Assembly: GCF_051401765.1 (NCBI RefSeq)
Contig: NW_027480422.1
Span: 27,422,001-27,486,000 of the forward strand
Direction of reading: 5' to 3'
Source: Calliopsis andreniformis
Taxonomy: Eukaryota > Arthropoda > Insecta > Hymenoptera > Andrenidae
DNA: 64,000 nt
The position numbers and the translations under genes were made by a program. Below are positions 3,001 to 18,381 of this stretch, piece by piece. The notes below the pieces were generated by a model, which was not told the DNA's origin, ran no database searches, and saw nothing but the letters and a program-made list of their open reading frames with translations. Positions within the stretch are counted from its first letter, which is position 1, and every line of letters begins with the position of its first letter.

Positions 3001-5178
3001 GGGTGAAGCCTAGGTTGCCCGGGACGTATAAATGACCATAACCTTCATACTGATTGCAATTATTCGTTTTATACGATGGATAAGCTGTTGTATTTCTATT
3101 GTATTTTATGCTTCAGGCGTTGACTTCTAAGGCCGTAGCTATTCGATGTGGTGGAGCAACGCCCTAGTGTGAAACCTAGGTTGCCCGGAACGTAGAAATG
3201 ACCATTACTTCCACACTGTTTGCAATTATTCATTCTATACAATGGAAAAACTGTTGTATATATACTGAATTTTATTCTTCTGGCATTGACTTCTAAGGCC
3301 CTAACTATTCGATGTGGTGGACCAACGCCCTATAGCGAAACCGATGTTGCCCGGAACGTAGAAATGACCATAACATTCATTCGAGTTGTAATATTTCGTT
3401 TTATACGATGGAAAAACTGTTGTATTTATATTGTATTTTATGCTTCAGGCGTTGACTTCCTAGGCCCTAACTATTCGCTCTGGTGGAACAACGCCCAAGA
3501 GTGAAGCCAAGGTTGCCTGGAACGTAGAAATGACCATTACTTTCACACTGGTTGCAATTATCCGTGTTAAACGATGGAAAAACTGTTGCATTTTTATTGT
3601 ATTTTATGCGTATGGAGTAGTTTTCTAAGGCCCTATCTATTCGACATGGTGGAGCAACGCCCTAGAGTGAAGCCTAGGTTGCCCGGAACGTAGACATGAC
3701 CATATCTTTCACACTGGTTGCAATTATTCCTGTTATACGATGGAAAAGCTGTTGTATTTCTATTGTATTTTATCCTTCTGGCGTCGACTTCTTAGGCCCT
3801 AACTATTCGATCTGGTGGAGCAACACCCTAGGGAGAAGCCTAGATTGCCCGGAACGTAGAAATGACCATTACCTTCAGGCTTGTTGCAATTTTTCCTGTT
3901 ATACGATGGAAAAACTGTTGTATTTATATAGAATTTTATGCTTCTGGCGTTGACTTCTAAGGCCCTCACTGTTCGATGTGGTGGAGCATCGCCCTAGAGC
4001 GAAGCCTAGGCTGCCGGAACGTAGAAATGACCATTACTTTCACACTGGCTGCAATTATTCCTGTTATACGATGGACAAACTGCTGGTTTTTTATTGTACT
4101 TTATGCTTCTGGCGATGACTTCTACGGCCCTATGTGTTCGATCTGGTGGAGCAACGCTCTAGAATGAAGCCTAGGTTGCCCGGACCTTGGAAATGACCAT
4201 CACCTTCACTCTGTTTGCAATTATTCCTGTTATACGATGGAAAAACTGTGGTATTTTTATTGTATTTTATGCTTCGGGCGTTGACTTCTGTGGTCCTAAC
4301 TATTGGACCTGCTGGAGCAACGCCATATGGTGAAGCCTAGGTTGCCCGGAACGTAGAAATGACCATATCTTACACACTGGTTGCAATTATTCCTGTTATA
4401 CGATGGAAAAGCTGTTGTACTTATATTGTATTTTATACTTCTGGCGTAGACTTCTTACGCCCTAACTATTCGATCTGGTGGAACGACGCCCCAGAGTGAA
4501 GCCTAGGTTGCCCGGAACTTAGAGGTGACCATCACCTTCGCTCTGGTTGCAATTATTCCTGTAATACGATGGAAAAACTGTTGTATTTTTATTGTATTTT
4601 ATGCACCGGGTATTGACTTCTGAGGTCCTAACTATTGGATCTGCTGGAGCAACGCCCTAGGTTGAAGCCTAGGTTGCCCGGAACGTAGAAATGACCTTAA
4701 CATTCATACTGGTTGCAATTATTCATTTTATACGATGGAAAAACTGTTGTATTTATATTGTATTTCAAGCCCCTGGCGTTGGCTCCTAAGGCAGTAGCTA
4801 TTCGATGTGGTGGAGTAACGCCCTAGACTGAAGCCTAGGTTTCCCGGAACGTAGAAATAACCATATCTTTCACACTGGTTGCAATTATTCCTGTTATACG
4901 ATGGAAAAACTGTTGTATGTATATTATATTTTATTCTTCAGGCGTAGACTGCTAAGGCCGTAGCTACTCGATGTGGTGGGGCCACGCCCTAGAGTGGAGC
5001 CTAGGTTGCCCGGAACGTAGAAATGATCATTACTTCCACACTGTTTGCAATTATTCATTTTATACAATGGAAAAACTGTTGTATTTATATTGTATTTTAT
5101 AGTTATGGCGTTGACTTCTAAGGCCGTAGCTATTCGATGTGGTGGCGCAATGCCATAGAGTGAAGCCTGGGTTGCCCG
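1..5178 (+). repeat. Left satellite array, 166-bp monomer
   Basis: About 31 head-to-tail monomers occur here. The landmark GAGCAACG recurs at 1, 167, 333 and 499, giving a 166-bp period. Conserved monomer segments include GTGAAGCCTAGGTTGCCCGG, ACGTAGAAATGACC, TTGCAATTATTCCTGTTATA and CGATGGAAAAACTGTTGTAT. The block is a mosaic of duplications. Bases 1 to about 366 recur almost exactly from 2656, and about 1030-1735 recurs at 3022-3727 (offset 1992 bp, 12 monomers). The right part of this block has fewer long internal duplications. Open frames up to 94 codons exist but are by-products of the repeat. No unique sequence, gene or other mobile element is visible. The array runs off the window edge. 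Confidence 0.97.
5175..5178. repeat. Target-site duplication CCCG, left copy
   Basis: CCCG immediately precedes the 5' LTR and recurs at 18382-18385 right after the 3' LTR. Removing the element and one CCCG restores a normal monomer reading GTTGCCCG followed by CAACGTAG, a variant seen elsewhere in the array. A 4-bp duplication fits gypsy/errantivirus integration. Confidence 0.9.
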
Positions 5179-5241
5179 TGTTACGTACCGAACATAAAAA
5201 ATTTAAATTTCTTTTTCTTTTTTTATATATAACTCGGTTGA

Positions 5242-5294
5242 ATTGCGTCTCGATAATGCAAAGCATTGTGGGAACTTCCCTAATCGAGCGTAAT
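5242..5294 (+). other. Structured RNA motif A (5' LTR copy)
   Basis: P1: ATTGCG-T-CTCGAT (5242-5254) pairs with ATCGAGCGTAAT (5283-5294), with a bulged T and one G-U pair. P2: AATGC (5255-5259) and GCATT (5263-5267). The constant GTG follows, then P3: GGGA/TCCC (5270-5280). First of six motifs with this layout in the element. Confidence 0.7.
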
Positions 5295-5567
5295 CTTGGC
5301 CTTTGAGTTTACGAAATTAAATATCCCTTTCGGCGGCGCGATCGACTTGTTAACGTAACGCATTCCTTCCTTGAAATCAACGTGGTCCTATTGCGCAGCG
5401 TATAGTCTCACCAAAGCGTAATCTTACAAATGCGTAGTATGAAATTAGGGATCATATTGTATACGCGGTGACACGTTCTGAATATAATTTTTCATTCGTC
5501 AAATATGTATAAATGAGATTCGGAATTTGACACTCTTAGTTAAGGTCATACTTTTACTAGTCTTGGT

Positions 5568-5618
5568 TATTGAAAATTTGGCAACGCATAAGCGTTGTGG
5601 GAAACCTTGTCAAATGAA
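5568..5618 (+). other. Structured RNA motif B (5' LTR copy)
   Basis: P1: ATTTG (5576-5580) with CAAAT (5611-5615), possibly extended by TATT/AATA. P2: AACGC (5583-5587), loop ATAA, GCGTT (5592-5596). Then GTGGGAAACCTTG, with a weak GGG/CCT P3. The P2 pair differs from motif A on both strands (T-A to C-G), so pairing is preserved by compensatory change. Confidence 0.65.
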
Positions 5619-5906
5619 TATTTAAATTTAAAATTTAAAGAACACCCGTTAGACCACTGAGGGTCAGCTTCCTCGAATCTCTGTGGATGATGTTTAAACT
5701 CTTTCGGCTAATTGGTTATTGTAAAGCGTTACACCGGATATATACAAAAGATTGTCATGAGTTGGGTGGTGCGTCGCGTGAGAAAATTTATGATGTGAAA
5801 GAGAGAATTGGAATGTTCACACATACACATTACTCAGCTTCTTTAACCTTAGAACTTGACCAATCACGGGCTCGGTAGGGCCAAAAGCACGCTCTCATTA
5901 GCTAAT

Positions 5907-5978
5907 GAAGCAGCGGCATAACCCTTCCATAATCGGAATGATTGATGCTGGATCCTTCCGAAGGCGTGATGCCGCTTC
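5907..5978 (+). other. Branched inverted repeat in U3
   Basis: GAAGC and GGCAT (5907-5919, with a 3-base bulge) pair with ATGCCGCTTC (5969-5978). Inside are two more hairpins, TTCC-ATAATC-GGAA and CCTT-CCG-AAGG. It is not the GTGG motif. It lies in U3 and could be a regulatory or protein-binding structure. The 3' LTR copy has one loop substitution. Confidence 0.4.
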
Positions 5979-6186
5979 ACTTGTCGACGTACAATCGCGA
6001 GGTGCGTGTCGTAAGTCCGCGATCTTCTAGAGATAGAGTTTTCTTCTAATTCTTAAAATCACTAAGTAGGAAGAAAAGGACTTAGGAAGTTCGTGTGAAT
6101 TCAAAATTTGTTTGTTTGTTCTGTTGTTATAATTTGGTTTATATATACATATATATATATATATATATTATTTTCAATCTGTTCCA

Positions 6187-6225
6187 TATAAAATAGCTGA
6201 TTAATTAAGAATTAAATTCATAGTG
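6187..6225 (+). promoter_or_regulatory. Candidate LTR core promoter (TATA box and start)
   Basis: TATAAAA is at 6187-6193, and a TCATAG initiator-like sequence lies 33 bases downstream at 6219-6224. The spacing fits a TATA-dependent RNA polymerase II start. It would divide the LTR into a long U3 (5179 to about 6219), an R region ending after the AATAAA at 6688, and U5 to 6944. AT-rich sequence makes chance TATA matches common, and an alternative start cannot be excluded. The equivalent TATA box in the 3' LTR is at 17638-17644. Confidence 0.4.
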
Positions 6226-6436
6226 TGTGTATGTGCGAATAAGTGTCTAATTCTTTCTTCCGTACAGGGTTAAGCAGTATCTAAAAAAATCCAAAGTGAG
6301 ACGTCAAAATTATTTTTGAGGAGATTTCTCTATTTTTTTTCTTTTAAAAGGAAAAGAAATTCTACTGGTGAGTCTTTTAAATTAATATTGTTTCCTTCTT
6401 TCGTTTTGAAATTTTAAAATTAATCATTTTAGAACG

Positions 6437-6498
6437 AGTGGCAATAGTTCAGATAGTCTAAAGACTGTGGGAATTTCTCTGGTCTGAATTGTTCCACT
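6437..6498 (+). other. Structured RNA motif C (5' LTR copy)
   Basis: P1: AGTGGCAATAGTTCAGA (6437-6453) pairs with TCTGAATTGTTCCACT (6483-6498), with G-U pairs and one bulge. P2: AGTC-TAAA-GACT (6455-6466). Then GTG and P3 GGGA/TCTC (6469-6479). The P2 sequence is unrelated to motifs A and B, but the constant GTGGG sits in the same place. If transcription starts near 6220 this copy lies in R, at both ends of the genomic RNA. Confidence 0.65.
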
Positions 6499-6596
6499 AT
6501 AAACGGGAGAATGAATGTCCGTTTGCACGTACTAATTTAGATATTTCTGTTCCTATACTCTTATACGTATATATATTTCTATATTATCTATTCACA

Positions 6597-6627
<31 letters not shown>

Positions 6628-6687
6628 TCATTTTTATACACGTTCTTATTGAAACATTTTATTATTCGATCTTTAATTAGATTCATC

Positions 6688-6693
6688 AATAAA
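6688..6693 (+). terminator. Poly(A) signal AATAAA, 5' LTR
   Basis: AATAAA sits in the 3' part of the LTR, followed by a T-rich stretch. The matching copy in the 3' LTR at 18125-18130 would be the functional one for element transcripts. Its location downstream of the putative start gives an R region of about 490 bases. Confidence 0.5.
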
Positions 6694-6949
6694 TACAATT
6701 TACGTATTTTATATTCTTTATTTTTAATTTTTTTCGGCCTTTATCCTGTTCGGATTTGAAATACAGCTGATCAAGGACCCGTATGGGACTGTAGCACCAC
6801 CGATCCCTTTAACTACTCGAAATAATATCTCAAGTTTTATTTACTTTTAAATTCAGACCCTTGTCATCCTCTCTTACGTACATTAGAAACAAGAATCATA
6901 TAAATGTTCGCGCTCGGGCGTCTCAACCCGCTCGGCGCGTAACAAAAAT

Positions 6950-6967
6950 TGGTGGCAGCGGTGGGAT
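6950..6967 (+). other. Primer binding site, tRNA-Leu type
   Basis: TGGTGGCAGCGGTGGGAT lies five bases after the LTR end. It complements the 3' end (including CCA) of metazoan tRNA-Leu with AAG or UAG anticodon as I recall it, and pairing continues past one mismatch into ACGAA. It would prime minus-strand DNA synthesis. The tRNA identity is from memory, not from a database. Confidence 0.75.
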
Positions 6968-7357
6968 ACGAAAATCGTTGTGCATGGAATGTAAATCTTT
7001 GTACAGGGATTTTCTAGGTGCTTCTAGTGATCAGAGGTATATTTGAATTTGAATAGGGTTTTTTTCTTTCTCCCCTTTTCTTTCAGAACTATTTTCTGTA
7101 TTATTCTGTGCAGTAGGACATTCAATTCAAATTTAGTATTAGTACTGTGAAACATTTTGTGCATCCATGGTGACGTTTTTATAAATTACTGTTGCCACTT
7201 GTAATTTTGAACATTTATTTTATTGTGCTACATATTTTTGTGTTATTGTGTATACTTCTATTGTCTTACATTTTGTGATTTATTTTGTGAAACATTTACT
7301 ATATTATGCACTGATTTTATTGTTCTACTTTGTGAGTTATTCCGATTGACATTTAAA
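6968..7357 (+). other. 5' leader with candidate splice donor
   Basis: Untranslated region between the primer binding site and gag. CAGAG|GTATAT (GT at 7037-7038) and CTAG|GTGCTT (GT near 7018) are plausible splice donors for the spliced env and accessory mRNAs. Upstream in-frame sequence from 7223 is T-rich and reads as a hydrophobic stretch unlike Gag, so translation probably starts at 7358. No other gene is seen. Confidence 0.45.
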
Positions 7358-8533
7358 ATGGCTACTTCTAATACTGATTCAAATGCAATGATGGCTTCTA
7401 TGGCAGAATGCTTGGCTATACAAAATAGCACGCTAAATATACCTTTCTTTGATGGAAGAAATACACCGTTAAGAGATTTTGTCCAAGATATTCAAAATAG
7501 TTCAGCTTTAGTTCCTCCGTCGTTAGACGGTTCGTTTCTTAAAGCAGTAATCGGAAAATTAAAGGGACCTGCTCGCGATAGTACATATGGCAAGACGTTT
7601 AAAACTGTTAATGAATTAATTAAACACTTAAAGGGAAGATTTGCGCCTGGGAAAAATTATCCATTTTATCATCACGAAATAGAAAATATACGAATGAATA
7701 GAGGAGAATCAGTTCAAGATTTCTATGATAGATTGAATATCTTTATCAGTGGAGCACAAGTTGCTTTAGAAGATAGTCATGGTAAAGATTCAGTACATAT
7801 GTTGGAACCGTTAAAAGAATGGTCGTTAGAAGCTTTTCTCCGTGGACTTCCGGATGAAATAGCACGATCTGTAGATGCTCGTGATCCTGAAACTTTGGAA
7901 GACGCTATTAAAATCGCAGTTCGGGTAGAATCGCGAATGAAATCGGGAATAACGCCGAACGGCGAAACACAACGTGTAACTTTTTCACAGAATAGTGATA
8001 GTTATTCGAGATCAATATCTCCCAATTATCAACGTTACACAAATTTTCACAATTATCAAACTCCGAAATACTCTAATCATCAGCAATATGCAATTAGTGA
8101 TAAATATGAAAATCGTTCGCGTTCTCCTAGTCCAACTGCAGGTATATCTAAATCACCGATAGGAATTTTAAAACCGCCTCACTCTAATTATCCACACAAA
8201 CAGTCTGAATTTCCGCCTAATATTCCACAACCATATTACCCACAATTCTTTTATCTTCCGGCACCGTATCCTCTTTATTATCCATATGCTCATCCATCAC
8301 AGTTTAATCAAACATACACACCCCATAATAATTATTCACATAGAACGCCTTCTCCATCGAGACCTTCTTCTCCGTACGATAATAATAAATTTAAGCCAAC
8401 CGATTCAAAAACCGATAATTTAAACTCAGAAGGGACTCGTCGAAACGACGCGACGTCGAGCCTCCGTCAGAAAGAGCGTCGCGCAACAGTCAAATTTCTA
8501 GAGAACCAAGAAAGCTTGGAGCAATTGAAATAA
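7358..8533 (+). CDS. gag: Gag structural polyprotein
   Basis: A 391-residue protein. I chose the ATG at 7358 (AAAATGG, good context) rather than the in-frame 7223 ATG, whose extra 45 residues are low-complexity hydrophobic. Residues about 25-220 look like a retrotransposon capsid domain (LNIPFFDGRNTPLRDF, RGESVQDFYDRLN, EAFLRGLPDEIARS). The C-terminal half is Pro/Tyr/Ser-rich with RSRSPSP and RTPSPSRPSSP, and basic near the end. No CCHC zinc knuckle is visible, as is usual for errantivirus Gag; the basic tail may bind RNA instead. It would form cytoplasmic virus-like particles. The last 115 bases overlap pol in the -1 frame. Confidence 0.9.
   Translation: MATSNTDSNAMMASMAECLAIQNSTLNIPFFDGRNTPLRDFVQDIQNSSALVPPSLDGSFLKAVIGKLKGPARDSTYGKTFKTVNELIKHLKGRFAPGKNYPFYHHEIENIRMNRGESVQDFYDRLNIFISGAQVALEDSHGKDSVHMLEPLKEWSLEAFLRGLPDEIARSVDARDPETLEDAIKIAVRVESRMKSGITPNGETQRVTFSQNSDSYSRSISPNYQRYTNFHNYQTPKYSNHQQYAISDKYENRSRSPSPTAGISKSPIGILKPPHSNYPHKQSEFPPNIPQPYYPQFFYLPAPYPLYYPYAHPSQFNQTYTPHNNYSHRTPSPSRPSSPYDNNKFKPTDSKTDNLNSEGTRRNDATSSLRQKERRATVKFLENQESLEQLK
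8419..8425 (+). other. -1 ribosomal frameshift slippery site T_TTA_AAC
   Basis: In the gag frame the codons are AAT TTA AAC, giving the canonical X_XXY_YYZ heptamer UUUAAAC, best known from coronaviruses. The pol (-1) frame has its last upstream stop, TAA, at 8416-8418, directly before the heptamer, and is then open to 13083. Downstream, in otherwise AT-rich DNA, is a CpG-rich stretch that can fold: CGTCG-AAA-CGACG (8438-8450), or GCGACG (8450-8455) with CGTCGC (8477-8482). The spacer of 10-12 bases is slightly long. Confidence 0.75.
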
Positions 8534-11500
8534 AGGGTCCATTAGTAAAAATGTTTTCAAAAGAGTTACGGTTAGGATTGGGATATTTTTTGATAGATAC
8601 CGGTGCGGATATAAATGTAATTAAATTAAATGCTATGGATGAAAATTCTACTGTCGCACTTGACGAGTCAGTTACAATTTCTGGAATAACACCCCAAATA
8701 CTAGAAACATTAGGTACTACAATAATCACTTTATTAGGACAACCGGTAAAATTTCATGTTGTAAAATCTTCATTTCCTTTAAGCTGTGACGGTATATTAG
8801 GAAAAGAATATCTTAGACAAGAACAAGCTGAAATTTCTTTTGCACACAATACTTTGGTAACACAAAACAATCCAATTAAACCCTTACGTTTTATAGGGGA
8901 AAAAGAGTTGAATCAGGATACTAAACGTAGAAATTTAACTATACGAAATTTATGTATAAAAGCGCGTTCCAGGCAAGCGATTGCCATAGACGTTATTAAT
9001 TGTGATTTGAAAGAAGGGTATTTACCAAAATTAGATATGATTGATGGATTATATGTTGGAGAAGCAGTTGTGTCTGTAAATGATGAGGGCACGTGTCATG
9101 TTCTCGCTATTAATACCTTGGAAGAAGATGTAAAAATTGAAATTTCACCTCAAGAATTAATTCCTTTTGAATATCACAACTTTCCAGAGGAACAAGAATA
9201 TTTCGATTCAGACTCAGATGACGAAACTTCACCGATTACATTAGACAGAGTCTCAGAAATAGTTAAAAGATTACGTTTGGATCATTTGAATAATGAAGAA
9301 AGAGATCACGTTATTGACCTTATAGAAGAATTTCCAGAACGTTTTCATTTACCAGGTGATAAATTAAAGGCAACTCCATGTATTAAACATCGTATCGTTA
9401 CTTCAGATGATATACCAATTAATACCAGACAATATAGATTTCCCCCTATTCACAAAGAAGAAATAGAACGACAGGTAGCGCATAAATTAAGCGACGGCAT
9501 TATAGCTCCTTCAAATTCACCATATAATTCACCGCTTTGGATTGTTCCAAAGAAACCAGATTCTAAGGGTAATCCAAGGTGGCGAATGGTAATAGATTTT
9601 CGGAAACTAAATGAAAAGACAATTGGCGATGCATATCCGTTACCTAATATCACCGACATACTCGATCACTTAGGCGAAGCTCAATATTTTTCCACTTTTG
9701 ATTTAGCAAGCGGTTTTCAACAAATTGAGATGAATCCAAAAGATAGACAAAAGACAGCATTTACCACTCCTAATGGACATTACGAGTATATTCGTATGCC
9801 CGAGGGTCTTAAAAATGCACCTGCTACTTTTCAACGTCTGATGGATCAAGTATTACGTGGTTTACAAGGTGTTGAGGTTTTCGTTTATCTAGATGATATC
9901 GTAGTTTACGCTAAAAATTTGGAAGAACATGAAAAGAAAATTCGTCGTTTATTTACACGTTTAGCTGACGCAAAATTAACCTTACAGCCGGATAAATGTG
10001 AATTTTTAAAAACAGAAGTCTCGTACTTAGGCCATATCATCAGTAGGAAAGGATTAAAACCAGATCCTAAAAAGATCAATGCTGTGAAAAATTTTCCTCG
10101 ACCTAAAACTCAGAAAAATATTCGACAATTCTTAGGCTTAGCTGGTTATTATAGACGTTTTATTAAGGACTTTGCACAAAAGGCTAAACCGTTGACAGAA
10201 TTACTAAAGAAAAATGCAAAATTTGTTTGGGGTACAGAACAAAAGGAAAGTTTTCTCGAACTACGAAAGGCTCTTTGCAAACGACCAGTTTTACAATATC
10301 CAAATTTTAAGAAAATATTTACATTAACCACAGATGCTTCAGATATTGCTATTGGTGCTGTACTTAGCCAAGAAGTCGATGGTCATGATTTACCAGTAGC
10401 ATACCTTTCTCGAACTCTAACTAAACCAGAACAAAACTATTTTACAACGGAAAAAGAATGTTTAGCTGTATTATACGCGATTTTACATTTTCGACCTTAT
10501 TTATATGGACGCAAATTTATATTGGTTAGTGATCATGAACCATTACGACGGATAAATTCAATAAAAGATCCAGGACAAAGACTAGTTCGATGGAGATTAA
10601 AATTAAAAGATTATGATTACGATTTTGTTCATAAATCCGGTAAATTAAATACTAACGCAGATGCACTATCGCGTAATCCAGTTATAATAGATGAAATAAT
10701 TTCTTCTGATGATTTTTCTTTATCCAGTTCGTCAGATGACGACATGAACGTTAAATCTGGAAAACTATATCCGATAGATGATCAAAATGCAGCAAGCATA
10801 GAAAAAGGCTCTGAAACTTCTGTGGTTCGTAAAGAAAACGTAGCGAAACCAAAAATAGGTAGACCGTTAGGCTCTAAATCCAGACCAAAGCAACTTTTAC
10901 CAGAAGATTTAGAAGCAATAGCCACTAGAACTAGATCAAGATCACGTTCAGCATTAGTTACACCTAGACCAACTTCGGTACCATTTACACCTTCACATGT
11001 AGAAAACATCTCTGACGATAGTTCCGATGATGAAATGCCAGACTTACCGATATTTCGTCGACGTAGGAGTGTTTTGCCGAATTTGGAACTTCATTCAGAA
11101 GCTCGAATGGTGGATAAGCCTAAAGTTTCAAATGACGGTGATACTTGTTCTCCTGATGCCGATGAATTACAACAATTAGATTCCCAAATAATACAGTCAG
11201 AAGATAACATGAGGATAGATTTACCTGAAATTTATAGTAGCAATAGCGAAACCGAAGACGAAATATTTGAAACTCCAGATCAGAGTAGGCAAGAACTTTC
11301 TAATGATTCGTCTGAGGAATTAACTGATGAACAAACACTAATTTTTAACCCCTCTGCCGAAATGGAAAATCAAGAATTAGCTCAAGGGATAAAAGGGTTA
11401 TTAAATCAAGGAAAGACTTCGGTAGATAGAAATTCTCAAAATTCAAATGATACTATTATACAGCAAACACATTCTAAGAAGGGAGGTAGAGCTACCGCAA

Positions 11501-13083
11501 TGTCAAAAACAAAATTTCCTACTACATTAAACTCACATTCTTTGGGTATACCAATTTCTGAAGATGCTACGTTAGGTTTAGAACCAAGTTCTCAAAATTT
11601 ACAATATGAAAATAAGATTCTAATATTTTCAAGAGAAAATTTAACTTACCATCGTTCAAATTATGTCCATTTCATTTCAGCAGTTTGTAAATTAACAACT
11701 TCAATTGGTAAATTACTTTCTGATTTAGGTGTTCTTATTACTGAATATTTATTAGAAGCTAAACCAAAGGTTGGACAGGTAATGGTCACTAAACATGGTA
11801 AGTATAAAGCTTTCAGCGTAGTTATTAAAAGGAATTATTTTGATGAATTAAAAATAGAGAATTTGATTATGGGTCTACAAAATTTAAGGAAAATTCTTTT
11901 AGATTTGAATGTAACTGAATTCAGAATATCGCAAAGTGGTGATTTCACAGATTTGCTTGCTCAAGGTACATTAATAGAAATATTATTGAATATCTTTGAG
12001 AATAGTAATATTGAAATTACTCTCTGTTGTGGAAATATTCAAATACCACCTGAAAGACTCCGTCTGGATATTATTTCAGAGTTTCATGGAAGTTTAGTGG
12101 GAGGACATAAAGGAGTTACAAAAACGTACCGTAGAATTCGCGAAAAATTTTATTGGCCGAATATGCGTAATGATATTCAAAACTTTATTCGCCCTTGTAA
12201 TAGTTGTCAAAATCAAAAATTAGTACGAACTAAAACGCGTGAACCAATGTTAATAACTGACACTCCATTAGAACCATTTGCAAAGGTTTCCTTAGATACT
12301 GTAGGACCTCTACCTGTTACACCGAATGGAAATAGGCACATTCTAACTATGCAAGACAATTTAACAAAATACTGTATAGCTGTTCCCGTTCCTGATATAA
12401 AAGCTGAAACGGTAGCTCATGCACTAGTTACACATCTTATATTAAAATATGGAACCCCTCGTGTAATTCTAACCGATAGAGGGACTAGTTTCATTAACAA
12501 ATTATTCCGTAAATTAGCCAGCCTTTTTAAGATCCGACATGTTACTACTTCCGGTTATAGATCTCAGACAAATGGCGCATTAGAAAGAAGTCATATAGTC
12601 TTAACTGAGTATATTAGTCATTATATAAACGAATTTGATGACTGGGATAGATTAGTACCTTTTGCAATATTCTCTTATAACACTTCTGTACATGAAGGTA
12701 CCAATTTCACACCGTATGAATTGGTCTTTGGTAAACTTGCGCGATGTCCTACTTCTTTCTCAGTAGAAGAAGATTTACCGACATATAATTCCTATTTACT
12801 CGATTTAATAACACGGCTTTCGGAGATGCAAATCATAGCGGGACAAAACTTGATTAGAGCGAAAGAAAGATCAAAATCCTATTATGATGAAAGTGCTCGC
12901 CCATTTAAAGGTAAGATAGGAGACATGGCACGTGTATTAGTTGAACCTAGGAAAGGCAAATTTGGTAAACGTTATCATGGACCGTACAAAATTATTGGAA
13001 TTCTGGAAGGAAATAATATTATATTGGAAGATGAAAATGGAAAAGTATTCACTAAACATATGGATAAATTACAATTGAATTAA
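8419..13083 (+). CDS. pol: Pol polyprotein (PR-RT-RNaseH-IN), -1 frame
   Basis: About 1554 codons from the slippery site; the first ATG is at 8551 and residues here count from it. Protease: DTGA at 16-19. Reverse transcriptase: about 290-520, with LPNITDILDHLG, FDLASGFQQIEM and the catalytic YLDD at 446-449 (9886-9897). RNase H: from TTDAS (Asp 595) to the HKSGKLNTNADALSR region. Next come about 300 residues of acidic, Ser-rich, disordered-looking sequence with an AT-hook-like KPKIGRPLGSK, then a folded-looking segment about 1025-1165 that may be a degenerate macrodomain. Integrase: HHCC finger (His at 12085, Cys at 12196 and 12205), then Asp 12295, Asp 12475 and Glu 12583 with exact D-35-E spacing, and a C-terminal GPYKI motif without chromodomain. 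No internal stop is seen, so it looks intact. Confidence 0.94.
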   Translation, partial: FKLRRDSSKRRDVEPPSERASRNSQISREPRKLGAIEIKGPLVKMFSKELRLGLGYFLIDTGADINVIKLNAMDENSTVALDESVTISGITPQILETLGTTIITLLGQPVKFHVVKSSFPLSCDGILGKEYLRQEQAEISFAHNTLVTQNNPIKPLRFIGEKELNQDTKRRNLTIRNLCIKARSRQAIAIDVINCDLKEGYLPKLDMIDGLYVGEAVVSVNDEGTCHVLAINTLEEDVKIEISPQELIPFEYHNFPEEQEYFDSDSDDETSPITLDRVSEIVKRLRLDHLNNEERDHVIDLIEEFPERFHLPGDKLKATPCIKHRIVTSDDIPINTRQYRFPPIHKEEIERQVAHKLSDGIIAPSNSPYNSPLWIVPKKPDSKGNPRWRMVIDFRKLNEKTIGDAYPLPNITDILDHLGEAQYFSTFDLASGFQQIEMNPKDRQKTAFTTPNGHYEYIRMPEGLKNAPATFQRLMDQVLRGLQGVEVFVYLDDIVVYAKNLEEHEKKIRRLFTRLADAKLTLQPDKCEFLKTEVSYLGHIISRKGLKPDPKKINAVKNFPRPKTQKNIRQFLGLAGYYRRFIKDFAQKAKPLTELLKKNAKFVWGTEQKESFLELRKALCKRPVLQYPNFKKIFTLTTDASDIAIGAVLSQEVDGHDLPVAYLSRTLTKPEQNYFTTEKECLAVLYAILHFRPYLYGRKFILVSDHEPLRRINSIKDPGQRLVRWRLKLKDYDYDFVHKSGKLNTNADALSRNPVIIDEIISSDDFSLSSSSDDDMNVKSGKLYPIDDQNAASIEKGSETSVVRKENVAKPKIGRPLGSKSRPKQLLPEDLEAIATRTRSRSRSALVTPRPTSVPFTPSHVENISDDSSDDEMPDLPIFRRRRSVLPNLELHSEARMVDKPKVSNDGDTCSPDADELQQLDSQIIQSEDNMRIDLPEIYSSNSETEDEIFETPDQSRQELSNDSSEELTDEQTLIFNPSAEMENQELAQGIKGLLNQGKTSVDRNSQNSNDTIIQQTHSKKGGRATAMSKTKFPTTLNSHSLGIPISEDATLGLEPSSQNLQYENKILIFSRENLTYHRSNYVHFISAVCKLTTSIGKLLSDLGVLITEYLLEAKPKVGQVMVTKHGKYKAFSVVIKRNYFDELKIENLIMGLQNLRKILLDLNVTEFRISQSGDFTDLLAQGTLIEILLNIFENSNIEITLCCGNIQIPPERLRLDIISEFHGSLVGGHKGVTKTYRRIREKFYWPNMRNDIQNFIRPCNSCQNQKLVRTKTREPMLITDTPLEPFAKVSLDTVGPLPVTPNGNRHILTMQDNLTKYCIAVPVPDIKAETVAHALVTHLILKYGTPRVILTDRGTSFINKLFRKLASLFKIRHVTTSGYRSQTNGALERSHIVLTEYISHYINEFDDWDRLVPFAIFSYNTSVHEGTNFTPYELVFGKLARCPTSFSVEEDLPTYNSYLLDLITRLSEMQIIAGQNLIRAKERSKSYYDESARPFKGKIGDMARVLVEPRKGKFGKRYHGPYKIIGILEGNNIILEDENGKVFTKHMDKLQLN

Positions 13084-13085
13084 AA

Positions 13086-13109
13086 TTAAGTTAATTTACT
13101 TAATCCCAG
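13086..13109 (+). promoter_or_regulatory. Candidate 3' splice site before env
   Basis: A T-rich tract runs into ACTTAATCCCAG|GAAGG, with AG at 13108-13109, ten bases before the env ATG at 13119. Errantivirus env is made from a spliced mRNA. The likely donor is in the leader near 7037. Confidence 0.55.
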
Positions 13110-13118
13110 GAAGGAAGA

Positions 13119-14732
13119 ATGAGGCAGGTTCAACTCCTGATGTCATTTTACGTTCTTCATTTCGTCGCTACAACATACGACATACCACAATATGGACTCT
13201 ATAAATTAACGCGACTTGACGCAAACCCGGGATTGTATTTCGAAAAGTTACATAACATCCGCTTTCAAAAGGCAGACTGGCGTGTTTCATTGGTTATAGA
13301 TATAAATAAATTGGACTATGAATATCCGCTAGAATATCGACAATTGGAAAATATTCATCAACAATGTATAAAAATTCCAACAAGGCTTGAATGTAGTTCC
13401 TTATTACGTATTCATTATATAAGGGAAAGAATTCAGGCAGCTTCCGAAATGTATGAGCAATTAAAACTATCAATATCAGAGATCGACTCCGCTGTAACGG
13501 AACCTGACGAGGAGCTCCCTAGGACGATAGTACGTCGGACTGTTCCATTTGGTTTTGTGGGGACGGTTGCTCATACATTATTCGGCACATTAACTGAAGA
13601 CGATGCGGATCAGTTTAATTCGGAAATAGATAAATTATATGCTGACCAAAAAGAAATAATTCAAATAGTGAATAATCGGACTCACATAGTCATAAGTGAC
13701 CTTCATCGTGTACATAGATTGATTGAACAAATTACTATGAATATTAAAGATCACAGAGATAAAATAAATAAACTAATAGGAATATTGAACGAAGACCGTT
13801 TATTAAATTACACATTCGCATTAAGTCAGTATGCAAGTTCCGTGGAGCAATCACTGAATCATTATATTTCTACTACTCAGAAATTTTTAACTGCTATAGC
13901 CTTTGCGCGGGAAGGAAAATTACATCCTTCCTTACTAAACGTGACCAAATTAAAAACAATAATAAATGAAATTCACACTTCCGTAATACACTATGAAATA
14001 CCATTGCCTCATGATCATCCGAGAATTGAAGAGTTTGTAAAATTAACAAAAGTAACTCTGAGACATTACGAAGGGAAATTAATTATAACTGTTCATGTTC
14101 CCTTGGTCAACCGTCTAAATTATTATTTATATCAAGTTCATAGTCTACCAATTTTACAACGTCTGGGGACTAATTTAAATTTTTCCGCTTATATACATCC
14201 ACAAAATTCATATTTAGGACTAAGTAGTGATCATAGTACCTATTTCCGTGCAACCGAACAATTCATAAATACCTGTCAGAAAACTTGGCATTATTATTTA
14301 TGCAATACGGACATACCTCTACATGAAGTCTCAGTAACAGAATCATGTGAAATATCTTTACTCTTGCGACCCAGCAAAGAACACTTTAGGCTATGTGACA
14401 TCAAACTTGCAAAGTTACAGGAATCTTATTGGACGAAATTAAAATCAACTGGAGAGTGGTTGTACTCTATTAAGCAGCCTGAAACATTACAAGTATTATG
14501 CGGAAAACAAGGAAGTACCTCAATCACAATTCATGGAACAGGAATGATAGGATTACATCCTGCCTGTATAGCTAAAACACGAACTACAGCTATTACTGGT
14601 ATCAAAATCTATGACAGTATTGAACAATTTTACTATAATCCTAATCTTTTGCTGGATATAAACGAACTCTCACCTATTATTATGGAATATCATAGCATGA
14701 AACCTATTAACAACAATCAGCCAGAAATTTAG
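13119..14732 (+). pseudogene. env: Env, baculovirus F-like fusion protein, stopped before its anchor
   Basis: A 537-residue open frame. The N-terminus is hydrophobic like a signal peptide (LLMSFYVLHFVATTY). A candidate cleavage region RTIVRR near residues 138-143 is a weak match to the furin motif, and a fusion-peptide-like hydrophobic stretch follows (FGFVGTVAHTLFGTL). A long helical heptad-type region (about 160-240) and a Cys-containing ectodomain come next. This layout matches the F-type envelope proteins of baculoviruses and errantiviruses (Pfam Baculo_F). The frame ends at TAG 14730-14732, but the same frame continues without further stops through a membrane segment to 15068. As read, the product would lack its anchor and be secreted or non-functional. 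A read error or stop readthrough cannot be excluded. Confidence 0.85.
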
Positions 14733-15068: not shown

Positions 15069-15189
15069 GGAATACAAGGATTCTATCAATCACTACAATA
15101 GAGCCGACTACCTTAATCCATAAAATTACCTTATTACTCCAAAGAATCATAATAGATTAATAATTTCTATTATATCGAATTAGTGCAAA

Positions 15190-15244
15190 AACAATTTTTG
15201 ACAATGTTTTACCATTGTGGGGAAACCCTGGTCATAAAATTGTT
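15190..15244 (+). other. Structured RNA motif D
   Basis: P1: AACAATTTTTGAC (15190-15202) with GTCATAAAATTGTT (15231-15244), about 13 pairs with one bulge. P2: AATG-TTTTAC-CATT (15203-15216). Then GTG and P3 GGG(G)-AAA-CCC (15219-15228). This is one of the cleanest copies. Confidence 0.75.
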
Positions 15245-15363
15245 ACTAAAATTTGATCATTTAAAATTGTATACCCTATATCTATCTATATGTACATGTG
15301 TATACGTCTTTTCTTTATACTTATATCTCAATCAATTCGAATAACTGATTATGTTCCGTCAAA

Positions 15364-15442
15364 GGTAACAATAACTCCTGGCAATGCATAACATTAGAAA
15401 TGGATGGCATTGTGGCACACCTAGTCAGAAGTTGTTGTTACC
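15364..15442 (+). other. Structured RNA motif E
   Basis: P1: GGTAACAATAACT (15364-15376) with AGTTGTTGTTACC (15430-15442), 13 pairs with one G-U, continued by CTG/CAG. P2: AATGC (15383-15387) with GCATT (15407-15411), carrying a larger loop that can itself pair CAT/ATG. Then GTGG-CACA-CC, giving a two-pair P3. It is the longest copy. Confidence 0.72.
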
Positions 15443-15533
15443 ACCAAAATTTTTATTGCCATACTAATTGGAATTGTCATAAAGTTCATTTGTTTCCTGA
15501 ATTTCTATTACCTTTGTATTTGTGTTGCTAAAG

Positions 15534-15553
15534 ATTAATTTGTCTTCACGCAG
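15534..15553 (+). promoter_or_regulatory. Candidate 3' splice site before accessory gene
   Basis: TTAATTTGTCTTCACGCAG ends in AG at 15552-15553, with a pyrimidine-rich tract, five bases before ATG 15558. Splicing here would make 15558 the first AUG of a subgenomic mRNA and explain translation of a gene far from the 5' end. The upstream ATG at 15522 would then be intronic. Confidence 0.55.
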
Positions 15554-15557
15554 CAAT

Positions 15558-16136
15558 ATGGCAAGCACAAGTGAGAAGCAGCCTTTAAATCGAGTTTTTG
15601 TAACACGACTGGCCCAACACACGAAGGGAAAAGATTTAATGAAGGCTTTCCAACATCTTGGTGCTACACATGCTGTAGTATTGCGGAAAAACAGTGGAAG
15701 CACTGCATTCGTAACATTTAATACATCCTACGAGGCTAAGACCGCTGTGCAGGAGGGAGAATTAAAAGGAATCATCTGTCACAAAAGAAGACTGCGTATC
15801 CTCCCAGCAGACGATTGGCACGATCGCAAACCCATAGCTGTAGCACCTAAACCTGTGTTACCAGACCCTTTCAATGGAATACTCCTAAATCGTCAAAAAC
15901 CCGAAATAATACTCCCTTTGGAATGTATTAGAAAAATCTGTAGTTATTTGACTTACAGGGAACGCACTACAATAGAGCTCGTATCAAAACGCTGGAGAGA
16001 AGGATGTCTGCAAAGTCATAGTTCTACCAAAGTTCTCGACCTTCAAGACTGGAGATGGAGTAACGGATGGGAGATCAGACCGAGGGCTGTTACAAAATCG
16101 CTGGATTTGATGCACTTGAACCGCTGGGAGAACTAA
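15558..16136 (+). CDS. Accessory protein: RRM plus F-box, apparently host-derived
   Basis: 192 residues from ATG 15558. Residues about 10-85 read as an RNA recognition motif: RNP2-like VFVTRL, RNP1-like STAFVTFN, and a last strand RLRILPADDWH. Residues about 115-150 form an F-box (ILPLECIRKICSYL, IELVSKRWREGC), the motif that binds Skp1 in SCF ubiquitin ligases. The frame then hits a stop at 16134-16136, but the -1 frame continues with leucine-rich-repeat-like sequence. RRM/F-box/LRR proteins exist in animals; C. elegans EEED8.10 is the comparison I recall. Such a gene is not part of the usual errantivirus set, so I infer capture of a host mRNA. Possible roles are RNA binding and targeting a host factor for ubiquitination, unproven. 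Confidence 0.72.
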   Translation: MASTSEKQPLNRVFVTRLAQHTKGKDLMKAFQHLGATHAVVLRKNSGSTAFVTFNTSYEAKTAVQEGELKGIICHKRRLRILPADDWHDRKPIAVAPKPVLPDPFNGILLNRQKPEIILPLECIRKICSYLTYRERTTIELVSKRWREGCLQSHSSTKVLDLQDWRWSNGWEIRPRAVTKSLDLMHLNRWEN

Positions 16137-16471
16137 CACATTGCACACGACTAATGATGAGCCACCTTAACCCGGAAATAGAAGGTCACTTCCTCGCTAG
16201 GCTTACCAATCTAACTCTTCTGGAATGCCGCGAAAATGCAGGAATAAATGATCAGGAAATATGCAACCTATTTCAAACAGTGCCCACCATACAGCATATC
16301 AGCCTAGAGGGATGTAAAAATATAACTAATGTCACTGCTCAGTATGCTGTAAGAATGTTAACTGGTAATAATACAACCCGTCACTTATATCTGGGTGGAA
16401 CAAGCGCAGAACTAAATTATAGACTAGCAAACAATAGGATAGTTAGAATATACTATGAACGCATGATCTAA
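16064..16471 (+). pseudogene. Leucine-rich-repeat tail of the accessory gene, in the -1 frame
   Basis: This frame opens at 16064 (TAA at 16061-16063) and ends at TAA 16469-16471. It contains F-box/LRR-type repeats: LARLTNLTLLECRENAGIND, then ICNLFQTVPTIQHISLEGCK. It overlaps the RRM/F-box frame from 16064 to 16136, so one small indel or a -1 shift in that interval would join them. No canonical slippery heptamer is in phase there, so a frameshift mutation is the simpler reading. The good preservation of both parts implies the break is recent. Confidence 0.6.
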
Positions 16472-16480
16472 TTAATAGTA

Positions 16481-16536
16481 GGATTAATACTTGATAATGC
16501 AAGACATTGTGGGTCTATCCCTGATTAAGTATTACC
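16481..16536 (+). other. Structured RNA motif F
   Basis: P1: TAATACTTGAT (16485-16495) with ATTAAGTATTA (16524-16534), 11 pairs with one G-U, plus GG/CC beyond a bulge. P2: AATG-CAAGA-CATT (16496-16508). Then GTG and P3 GGG-TCTAT-CCC (16511-16521). It lies just downstream of the accessory reading frame and about 90 bases before the polypurine tract. Confidence 0.75.
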
Positions 16537-16622
16537 TCCAGTTATCAACTACAAATATTATCATTTTTCCATTTCTTTCTCTTTTAACGCCATTAAACAT
16601 CGACGAGGACGACGATGATTCT

Positions 16623-16635
16623 AAGGAGGGAGGGA
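16623..16635 (+). other. Polypurine tract
   Basis: AAGGAGGGAGGGA abuts the TGTTACG start of the 3' LTR exactly, where plus-strand synthesis is primed in LTR retrotransposons. Confidence 0.9.
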
Positions 16636-16698
16636 TGTTACGTACCGAACATAAAAAATTTAAATTTCTTTTTCTTTTTTTATATATAACTCGGTTGA

Positions 16699-16751
16699 AT
16701 TGCGTCTCGATAATGCAAAGCATTGTGGAAACTGCCCTAATCGAGCGTAAT
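16699..16751 (+). other. Structured RNA motif A (3' LTR copy)
   Basis: P1 and P2 are identical to the 5' copy. P3 differs at two bases (GTGGAAACTGCCC instead of GTGGGAACTTCCC), which shortens P3 to two G-C pairs. This copy would be transcribed near the 3' end of the genomic RNA. Confidence 0.65.
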
Positions 16752-17024
16752 CTTGGCCTTTGAGTTTACGAAATTAAATATCCCTTTCGGCGGCGCGATC
16801 GACTTGTTAACGTAACGCATTCCTTCCTTGAAATCAACGTGGTCCTATTGCGCAGCGTATAGTCTCACCAAAGCGTAATCTTACAAATGCGTAGTATGAA
16901 ATTAGGGATCATATTGTATACGCGGTGACACGTTCTGAATATAATTTTTCATTCGTCAAATATGTATAAATGAGATTCGGAATTTGACACTCTTAGTTAA
17001 GGTCATACTTTTACTAGTCTTGGT

Positions 17025-17075
17025 TATTGAAAATTTGGCAACGCATAAGCGTTGTGGGAAACCTTGTCAAATGAA
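17025..17075 (+). other. Structured RNA motif B (3' LTR copy)
   Basis: Same sequence as the 5' LTR copy: ATTTG/CAAAT closing stem, AACGC/GCGTT hairpin, then GTGGGAAACC. Confidence 0.63.
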
Positions 17076-17881
17076 TATTTAAATTTAAAATTTAAAGAAC
17101 ACCCGTTAGACCACTGAGGGTCAGCTTCCTCGAATCTCTGTGGATGATGTTTAAACTCTTTCGGCTAATTGGTTATTGTAAAGCGATACACCGGATATAT
17201 ACAAAAGATTGTCATGAGTTGGGTGGTGCGTCGCGTGAGAAAATTTATGATGTGAAAGAGAGAATTGGAATGTTCACACATACACATTACTCAGCTTCTT
17301 TAACCTTAGAACTTGACCAATCACGGGCTCGGTAGGGCCAAAAGCACGCTCTCATTAGCTAATGAAGCAGCGGCATAACCCTTCCATAATCGGAATGATT
17401 GATCCTGGATCCTTCCGAAGGCGTGATGCCGCTTCACTTGTCGACGTACAATCGCGAGGTGCGTGTCGTAAGTCCGCGATCTTCTAAAGATAGAGTTTTC
17501 TTCTAATTCTTAAAATCACTAAGTAGGAAGAAAAGGACTTAGGAAGTTCGTGTGAATTCAAAATTTGTTTGTTTGTTCTGTTGTTATAATTTGGTTTATA
17601 TATACATATATATATATATTATTTTCAATCTGTTCCATATAAAATAGCTGATTAATTAAGAATTAAATTCATAGTGTGTGTATGTGCGAATAAGTGTCTA
17701 ATTCTTTCTTCCGTACAGGGTTAAGCAGTATCTAAAAAAATCCAAAGTGAGAAATTATTTTTGAGGAGATTTCTCTATTTTTTTTCTTTTAAAAGGAAAA
17801 GAAATTCTACTGGTGAGTCTTTTAAATTAATATTGTTTCCTTCTTTCGTTTTGAAATTTTAAAATTAATCATTTTAGAACG

Positions 17882-17943
17882 AGTGGCAATAGTTCAGATA
17901 GTCTAAAGACTGTGGGAATTTCTCTGGTCTGAATTGTTCCACT
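17882..17943 (+). other. Structured RNA motif C (3' LTR copy)
   Basis: Same as the 5' LTR copy: long AGTGG...CCACT closing stem, AGTC/GACT hairpin, GTGGG and a short third hairpin. Confidence 0.63.
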
Positions 17944-18124
17944 ATAAACAGGAGAATGAATGTCCGTTTGCACGTACTAATTTAGATATTTCTGTTCCTA
18001 TACTCTTATACGTATATATATTTCTATATTATCTATTCACATATTTTTATATATATATATATATTCATTTTTATACACGTTCTTATTGAAACATTTTATT
18101 ATTCGATCTTTAATTAGATTCATC

Positions 18125-18130
18125 AATAAA
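18125..18130 (+). terminator. Poly(A) signal AATAAA, 3' LTR
   Basis: Likely 3'-end processing signal for the genomic and spliced RNAs. T-rich sequence follows. All motifs D, E, F and the 3' LTR copies of A, B and C lie upstream and would be retained in every transcript. Confidence 0.55.
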
Positions 18131-18381
18131 TACAATTTACGTATTTTATATTCTTTATTTTTAATTCTTTTCGGCCTTTATCCTGTTCGGATTTGAAATA
18201 CAGCTGATCAAGGACCCGTATGGGACTGTAGCACCACCGATCCCTTTAACTACTCGAAATAATATCTCAAGTTTTATTTACTTTTAAATTCAAACCCTTC
18301 TCATCCTCTCTTACGTACATTAGAAACAAGAATCATATAAATGTTCGCGCTCGGGCGTCTCAACCCGCTCGGCGCGTAACA

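What the first reader, a model, noticed from the sequence alone, without database searches (positions are those of the whole stretch)
15190..16536. A repeated, covarying three-way-junction RNA motif in a retrotransposon
Six distinct motifs (A 5242, B 5568, C 6437, D 15190, E 15364, F 16481; A-C repeated in the 3' LTR) share one layout: closing stem P1, hairpin P2, constant GTGG(G), short GG/CC hairpin P3, then the other P1 strand. P1 sequences are unrelated yet pair over 5-17 bp in every copy. P2 keeps pairing through changes (AATGC/GCATT, AACGC/GCGTT, AGTC/GACT). Only GTGG(G) and the fold are constant. That is compensatory evidence within one element. The motifs concentrate at the 3' end of the predicted RNA. 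I know of no named element with this pattern. Candidate roles include nuclear export (CTE-like), stability or exonuclease resistance, translation, and packaging.
Basis: partly seen in the sequence, partly recalled or inferred. Interest (0 to 1): 0.87.

Follow-up and report, generated by a model that had tools for sequence, protein, structure and literature searches.

The report
Repeated three-way-junction RNA in bee retroelements
A retrovirus-like element in what looks like a bee genome carries seven scattered copies of a small three-armed RNA fold, and related elements keep the fold at matching places while its sequence changes, so it is very probably a real RNA signal, not found described so far, whose job still has to be tested.

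Summary
All six motifs exist; a seventh (G, 11081-11133, in pol) was found by descriptor. Layout: P1, P2 directly on P1, joint GU, P3 (GG..CC), joint UR (UU in B), P1'. A strict descriptor finds exactly these 7 in the one-LTR element, 0 antisense, 0 in 51 kb of satellite; 1000 shuffles average 0.011. Ten of 12 core pairs change on both sides.

The genome (1.02 Gb, probably a bee's) holds diverged relatives. A covariance model from four window motifs gives 9 hits at E<=0.0035 in their pieces, all sense, before the LTR and 67 and 432 nt into it (window 70 and 398). P1 is replaced but still pairs: motif A against a family-H copy, 12 pairs, 6 changed on both sides, 0 broken. GUGG is not strictly constant: AUGG and UUGG occur. 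Rfam has no match.

The elements are errantivirus-like (Baculo_F env) with an extra RRM-F-box gene. Best reading: repeated protein-docking sites on the element's RNA for post-transcriptional control, like RSV direct repeats or an RRE. Function is untested; the RRM protein as ligand is a guess.

The parts
5179..6944 (+). 5' LTR (TGTTACG...CGTAACA), flanked by CCCG on both outer sides of the element (4-bp target duplication)
   Evidence: sequence and LTR comparison
16636..18381 (+). 3' LTR
5242..5294 (+). motif A (5' LTR)
5576..5615 (+). motif B (5' LTR)
   Evidence: found by R1, which was not built from it, E 1.3e-4
6438..6497 (+). motif C (5' LTR)
11081..11133 (+). motif G, new, inside pol (linker between RNase H and integrase)
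   Evidence: descriptor; counterpart in L050; not found by R1
15190..15244 (+). motif D, between env and accessory ORF
15364..15442 (+). motif E, between env and accessory ORF; long P2 loop
   Evidence: R1 E 0.051; counterpart in L054 by alignment
16485..16534 (+). motif F, between the accessory gene and the 3' LTR
   Evidence: counterparts in L053, L059, L061, L063, L065
16699..16751 (+). motif A in the 3' LTR
17033..17072 (+). motif B in the 3' LTR
17883..17942 (+). motif C in the 3' LTR
15558..16136 (+). accessory ORF with RRM and F-box domains; an acceptor-like sequence lies just before its ATG (by eye)
   Evidence: Pfam; sequence; relatives
16064..16471 (+). overlapping ORF in another frame, LRR-like by eye and by a sub-threshold Pfam match
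7211..8533 (+). gag ORF
   Evidence: (Retrotrans_gag E 0.0014, below its cut-off)
8419..13083 (+). pol ORF (protease, RT, RNase H, integrase)
13104..14732 (+). env ORF (Baculo_F), interrupted by an in-frame TAG; the frame continues to 15068

Best explanation
The motif is a cis-acting RNA element of an errantivirus-like lineage: a three-way junction of about 40 nt at its core, in which P1 and P2 abut without spacer, a short P3 is held between two 2-nt joints (NU, and usually YR), and P1 may have almost any sequence as long as it pairs. It is repeated 7 times per element so that several molecules of one RNA-binding protein can dock on the element's RNA. The most likely job is post-transcriptional: helping unspliced and partly spliced element RNA to be exported or kept stable, as the direct repeats of Rous sarcoma virus or an RRE do. 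Shown: the fold by covariation, its repetition, its strand bias, its conservation at matching places in diverged elements. Inferred: protein docking, export or stability. Guessed: that the element's own RRM-F-box protein is the ligand.
For: Fold and repetition. Counterparts in other families at matching places, measured from the LTR start to the model core: F ends 107 nt before it in the window, 134, 134 and 96 nt in X, Y and Z; A begins 70 nt into the LTR in the window, 67 in X; B 398 in the window, 432 in Z. P1 turnover with kept pairing: A against the family-H copy L030, 12 pairs: 4 same, 2 one-sided, 6 two-sided, 0 broken, a one-nt bulge at the same place; C counterpart in L049 with 10 contiguous P1 pairs; 16 chosen rows, 95.3% of cells paired against 73.1% shuffled, 10 of 12 pairs with two-sided change. 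All 9 model hits with E<=0.0035 are sense. D and E lie between env and an acceptor-like sequence just before the accessory ATG (by eye); if used, they are intronic for that mRNA, as an RRE is. D/E and F flank an extra gene as the RSV repeats flank src (PMC7551171, passages).
Against: No expression, splicing or binding data. Modelled in isolation the junction is often not the favoured fold (ensemble share 0.006-0.29). In families X, Y and Z the 0.8 kb upstream of the accessory gene holds no D/E counterpart at E<=5, and the C3 locus shows none in either piece, so the RRE-like placement is not universal. Two weak antisense hits (E 0.4) also occur. The acceptor-like sites before env and the accessory ATG are not in the list of my own acceptor scan. 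LTR copies could equally serve packaging or transcription.
Confidence: 0.42

Rival explanations
1. Packaging signal: the junctions are binding sites for Gag, several along the genomic RNA, so that full-length RNA is chosen for particles.
For: Several copies spread over the element, sense strand only, including one in pol. Three-way junctions with exposed G are known in retroviral packaging signals (recalled).
Against: A, B, C and F would be present in spliced RNAs too. Gag here shows no zinc-knuckle among its Pfam matches up to E 1.
Confidence: 0.2
2. RNA decay block or stability element: the junctions resist exonucleases or recruit tailing enzymes.
For: Most copies lie in LTRs or near the 3' LTR; compact three-way junctions occur in exonuclease-resistant RNAs (recalled).
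Against: No match to any Rfam family at gathering level, and none convincing permissively for 15150-17100. P2 and P3 loops, read by eye, share no sequence and contain no CNGGN pentaloop of the kind I recall for tailing-recruiting elements. No constant loop that could form a pseudoknot.
Confidence: 0.15
3. DNA-level element: cruciform or promoter/insulator sites.
For: Three of seven are in LTRs, close to likely regulatory DNA.
Against: Fixed orientation with 0 antisense in the element, G-U pairs among the kept pairs, copies outside the LTRs.
Confidence: 0.06
4. Neutral relics: hairpins duplicated long ago, with no present function.
For: Old copies do decay: in L004, E and B carry changes that break pairs; of 10 core matches in the genome outside the A, H, D, E and F types only 1 has a P1 of 5 bp or more.
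Against: P1 replaced yet paired at matching places in several families; joints and P2 kept while loops change in the G counterpart.
Confidence: 0.05

Closest known systems
Direct repeats flanking src of Rous sarcoma virus (PMC7551171, passages seen)
   Same: Repeated cis element on both sides of an extra gene near the 3' LTR; retroviral RNA
   Different: Here 7 copies of a short three-way junction, also in LTRs and pol; no binding to NXF1 shown
HIV-1 RRE with Rev and MPMV CTE (PMC7551171 passages; PMC10309623 section 15)
   Same: Structured RNA serving unspliced RNA; D and E may be intronic like an RRE
   Different: RRE and CTE are, as far as I recall, single larger structures; ligand unknown here
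Cer1 LTR element of C. elegans and its CERV protein (PMC10309623, abstract and section 15 read)
   Same: An invertebrate LTR element with an own extra protein, there needed for genomic RNA export
   Different: CERV is described with G and M domains, not as an RRM-F-box protein; no repeated RNA motif is mentioned in what I read
SPRE of mammalian endogenous retroviruses (PMC8579622, passages seen)
   Same: Cis RNA element of endogenous retroviruses acting after transcription
   Different: Its authors find that predicted structures vary markedly; here the structure is what is kept
Errantiviruses (gypsy-like elements with baculovirus-F-type env)
   Same: gag, pol, Baculo_F env, LTRs
   Different: Extra RRM-F-box gene and the repeated junction

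Membership tests
Errantivirus-like LTR element | RT, RNase H, integrase of Gypsy type between LTRs | tested here: met
Errantivirus-like LTR element | env of baculovirus F type | tested here: met
   PF12259 E 1.1e-48; frame interrupted
Any Rfam 15 RNA family | score at or above gathering threshold | tested here: not met
   0 matches in the window
RSV-DR / CTE / RRE type export element | structured or repeated cis element in the RNA of a retroelement | tested here: met
   by sequence and covariation only:
RSV-DR / CTE / RRE type export element | promotes export of unspliced RNA through NXF1 or CRM1 | not testable with these tools
   no expression data
Tailing-recruiting 3' elements (CNGGN pentaloop, recalled) | CNGGN pentaloop in a hairpin | tested here: not met
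   by eye in the P2 and P3 loops printed
Retroviral packaging signal | binds Gag and directs packaging | not testable with these tools
   none
Self-cleaving ribozyme | match to a described ribozyme model | tested here: not met
   no Rfam match; undescribed classes not excluded

The most novel reading that the evidence does not exclude
The element's own RRM-F-box protein (in relatives an open frame of about 572 codons) binds the junctions through its RRM and brings an SCF ubiquitin ligase to its RNA, clearing host proteins such as silencing factors from it: a self-encoded RNA-tethered ligase adaptor with its own RNA tag. Gene and motif were found together in the window family, in H (C133), in X, Y, Z and at C4; one gene-bearing locus (C3) showed no motif in the two pieces read. 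Elements without the gene were not examined, so association is not tested.
Probability: 0.1. Interest if true: 0.93.

Novelty: new variant of a known kind. Interest (0 to 1): 0.72.

Why it matters
Repeated cis RNA signals that survive turnover of their closing helix give unusually direct evidence of an RNA fold. If the reading holds, it would give insect retroelements an RRE/CTE-like signal with a clear consensus that can be tested, and it sits beside an accessory gene whose domains (RNA binding plus ubiquitin-ligase adaptor) suggest a way to interfere with the host.

Tried and rejected
Rfam at gathering level and permissively: nothing at gathering level, three weak unrelated matches permissively. 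Relatives in viral contigs with env, RT and an RT alignment and in genome contigs: none confirmed. Protein homologues of the accessory ORF and of the LRR-like ORF: none at the thresholds used. AlphaFold of the accessory ORF from one sequence: mean pLDDT 33.8, not used. PDB sequence search: best E 0.039 to an SRSF7 RRM, too weak to use.

Amino-acid test of motif G with the Anthophora pol protein: 4 pairs are forced to change, 3 of them stay pairable including one two-sided change, but random pairs that are forced to change stay pairable 52% of the time, so this is not counted as evidence. Covariation within the H family alone is not significant (9 rows, 96.5% paired against 95.9% shuffled, 105 of 500 shuffles as high). 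Core matches in the genome: of 20 flanks fetched, 10 have a P1 of 5 bp or more, 8 of them H copies; of the 10 matches of other types only L027 does. The cross-locus control, inflated by same-family pairs, gives 106 of 380. MAFFT misaligned B and G, so model R1 was built from A, C, D and F only. The strict descriptor finds none of the motifs in the 14 flanks of other accessory genes; only the model and a loosened descriptor do.

The 16 rows of A7 were chosen and trimmed by hand. Left out: Y_F (core identical to X_F), further copies of X_A and of the H type, and decayed or P1-less loci (L028, L032-L034, L036-L038, L040, L041). H_C entered after a model hit of only E 0.09; W_E and H_G entered by alignment, not by model; L027 by pattern. 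For 'pairs with a change on both sides' 2 of 500 shuffles reach the observed 10.

Papers: the listings of searches (best 12 to 20 rows each, open-access papers only) show nothing that describes this motif.

Full report
What the window is. Positions 1-5178 and 18382-64000 are a satellite of about 166 bp. It is interrupted by an LTR element: LTRs 5179-6944 and 16636-18381 with 9 substitutions and 24 gap columns between them, gag, pol, an env of baculovirus F type and an extra ORF with RRM and F-box domains. The pol proteins most alike by identity are from bees (85% to Anthophora quadrimaculata, 83% to Osmia bicornis, over residues 300-800), so the host is probably a bee; the genome itself is unnamed (1.02 Gb).

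The motif. Written by joints: P1, no spacer, P2, GU, P3 with GG..CC (one G-U in C), UR (UU in B), P1'. A loose descriptor anchored on GTGG finds 8 sites in the one-LTR element and none antisense; 200 shuffles average 0.25, and 0.01 at P1>=10 against 6 observed. It also finds 5 in 45.6 kb of satellite, + strand. GTGG is first of 256 tetramers by hits per occurrence; by raw count 9 against 8 for AAAT. One of the 8 (7749, gag) does not fit the strict joints and is dropped. One is new: G at 11081-11133 in pol, with an 11-bp P1; it obeys the UR joint, which was not part of the loose descriptor. The strict descriptor, written after seeing these, finds exactly 7 in the element and none antisense or in the satellite; 1000 shuffles average 0.011 at P1>=5. 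In 20 other stretches of the genome (200 kb, both strands) there is one hit, with a 5-bp P1.

Covariation inside the element. On 7 trimmed cores, 97.6% of cells pair against 74.7% after shuffling, 10 of 12 pairs have changes on both sides, and sliding the partners gives 50% or less. Outer P1 sequences show no kinship (p 0.34 and 0.39). Model R1, from A, C, D and F, recovers B (E 1.3e-4) and E (0.051), but not G. The energy model alone does not favour the junction in every copy: ensemble share 0.006 to 0.29.

The motif in the genome. The core pattern without P1 has 45 matches in the genome and 0 for the reversed pattern: 15 of the A type (one is this window's 3' LTR variant), 11 of a second type (H), 3 each of D, E and F, and 10 others. 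A second pattern for motif B had 27 rows against 8 in the control; 19 of the 27 are B itself or near it. Flanks of 20 matches of the first pattern were fetched: 10 have a P1 of at least 5 bp (8 of type H, one A, and L027); of the 10 'other' matches only L027 does, so those are mostly chance matches or decayed copies.

Diverged relatives. A type-H locus on contig C133 belongs to a damaged element (gag 57% in its longest stretch; pol 48-85% by stretch, env 56%, accessory 37-52%). Type H is the counterpart of A. Compared on the H copy L030 (contig C3), 12 P1 pairs: 4 the same, 2 changed on one side, 6 on both, none broken, and a one-nt bulge at the same place, set by hand; the C133 copy itself has a somewhat shorter P1 (score 9 against 10). 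The C133 element also has the G counterpart: P2, P3 and joints unchanged, loops changed, the innermost and outermost P1 pairs lost, one G-U become G-C. It has a C counterpart with joint UU and 10 contiguous P1 pairs (model E only 0.09). In its tblastn matches env stops at residue 225 and the accessory match begins at residue 65, so the D/E region seems deleted; no F or 3' LTR was found in L051.

A search with the accessory protein gave 32 matches in the genome; 15 of them show open frames of 572 codons at 48-49% identity. Flanks of 7 genes were fetched (14 pieces). With R1, 5 of the 7 loci have hits at E 2.1e-4 or better (C304, C11, C203, C13:39664016, C1:338430); C4 has the E counterpart by alignment although the model gives only E 1; C3 has none. 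C304, C11 and C203 are near-identical copies of one family and C13 is close to them, so these are three families (X, Y, Z) rather than five. All 9 hits with E<=0.0035 (these and H) are sense; two hits at E 0.4 are antisense. Measured from the LTR start to the model core, F ends 134, 134 and 96 nt before it in X, Y and Z (107 in the window), A begins 67 nt into the LTR in X (70), B 432 nt in Z (398). The upstream pieces of X, Y and Z hold no D/E counterpart at E<=5.

Sixteen chosen rows. 95.3% of cells pair against 73.1% shuffled; 10 of 12 pairs change on both sides (2 of 500 shuffles reach this); 45 such cells against 12.7; sliding gives 49% or less. The rows were picked and trimmed by hand, and several are related, so the shuffle counts are not probabilities.

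Mechanism. What is shown is a kept RNA fold. Its freedom in P1 and its nearly fixed joints fit recognition of a shape by a protein. Seven copies fit several bound molecules. D and E lie between env and an acceptor-like sequence just before the accessory ATG (by eye; not in my scan's list); if that site is used they are intronic for the accessory mRNA and stay on unspliced and env RNA, as an RRE does. D/E and F lie on either side of the extra gene, as the RSV repeats lie beside src, which are reported to bind NXF1 and DDX5 (PMC7551171, passages). Cer1 of C. elegans shows that an invertebrate LTR element can need an own protein for export of its RNA (PMC10309623, abstract and section 15). From this I take export or stability control as most likely (0.42), packaging next (0.2). 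Whether the RRM-F-box protein is the ligand is open.

Novelty. No Rfam family matches at gathering level. The listings of the paper searches show nothing on it, within open-access papers. As a kind, a cis RNA element of a retroelement is known; this form and its repetition are not known to me.

Noticed in passing
15558-16136 and relatives (C304, C396, C364 and others): An errantivirus-like lineage carries an RRM-F-box accessory gene; 15 of 32 matches in the genome show an open frame of 572 codons. No homologue was found in the protein database at E<=0.001.
   Followed up: partly
16064-16471: LRR-like ORF overlaps the RRM-F-box ORF in another frame; another copy on C13 shows one open frame of 570 codons, so the frame in this window is probably broken.
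   Followed up: partly
14730-14732: In-frame TAG in env; the same frame continues to 15068 with what looks like a membrane-spanning stretch (by eye).
   Followed up: no
5272 and 5277 versus the 3' LTR: Two of the 9 substitutions between the LTRs fall in P3 of motif A; the 3' copies in L004 and L005 have the 5' LTR form.
   Followed up: partly
about 11011-11115 (pol linker): The best conserved 30-codon stretches of an otherwise variable pol linker overlap motif G (Anthophora protein); also alike in the C133 element. Protein or RNA constraint not separated.
   Followed up: partly
6368, 6267, 7086; before 13119 and before 15558: Splice-donor-like and acceptor-like sequences in the LTR and leader (scan) and just before the env and accessory ATG (by eye).
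   Followed up: no
1-5178 and 18382-64000: Long array of a satellite of about 166 bp; the element is inserted in it.
   Followed up: no
6950-6966: Primer-binding-site-like sequence after the 5' LTR; resembles the end of a tRNA-Leu by recall, not tested.
   Followed up: no
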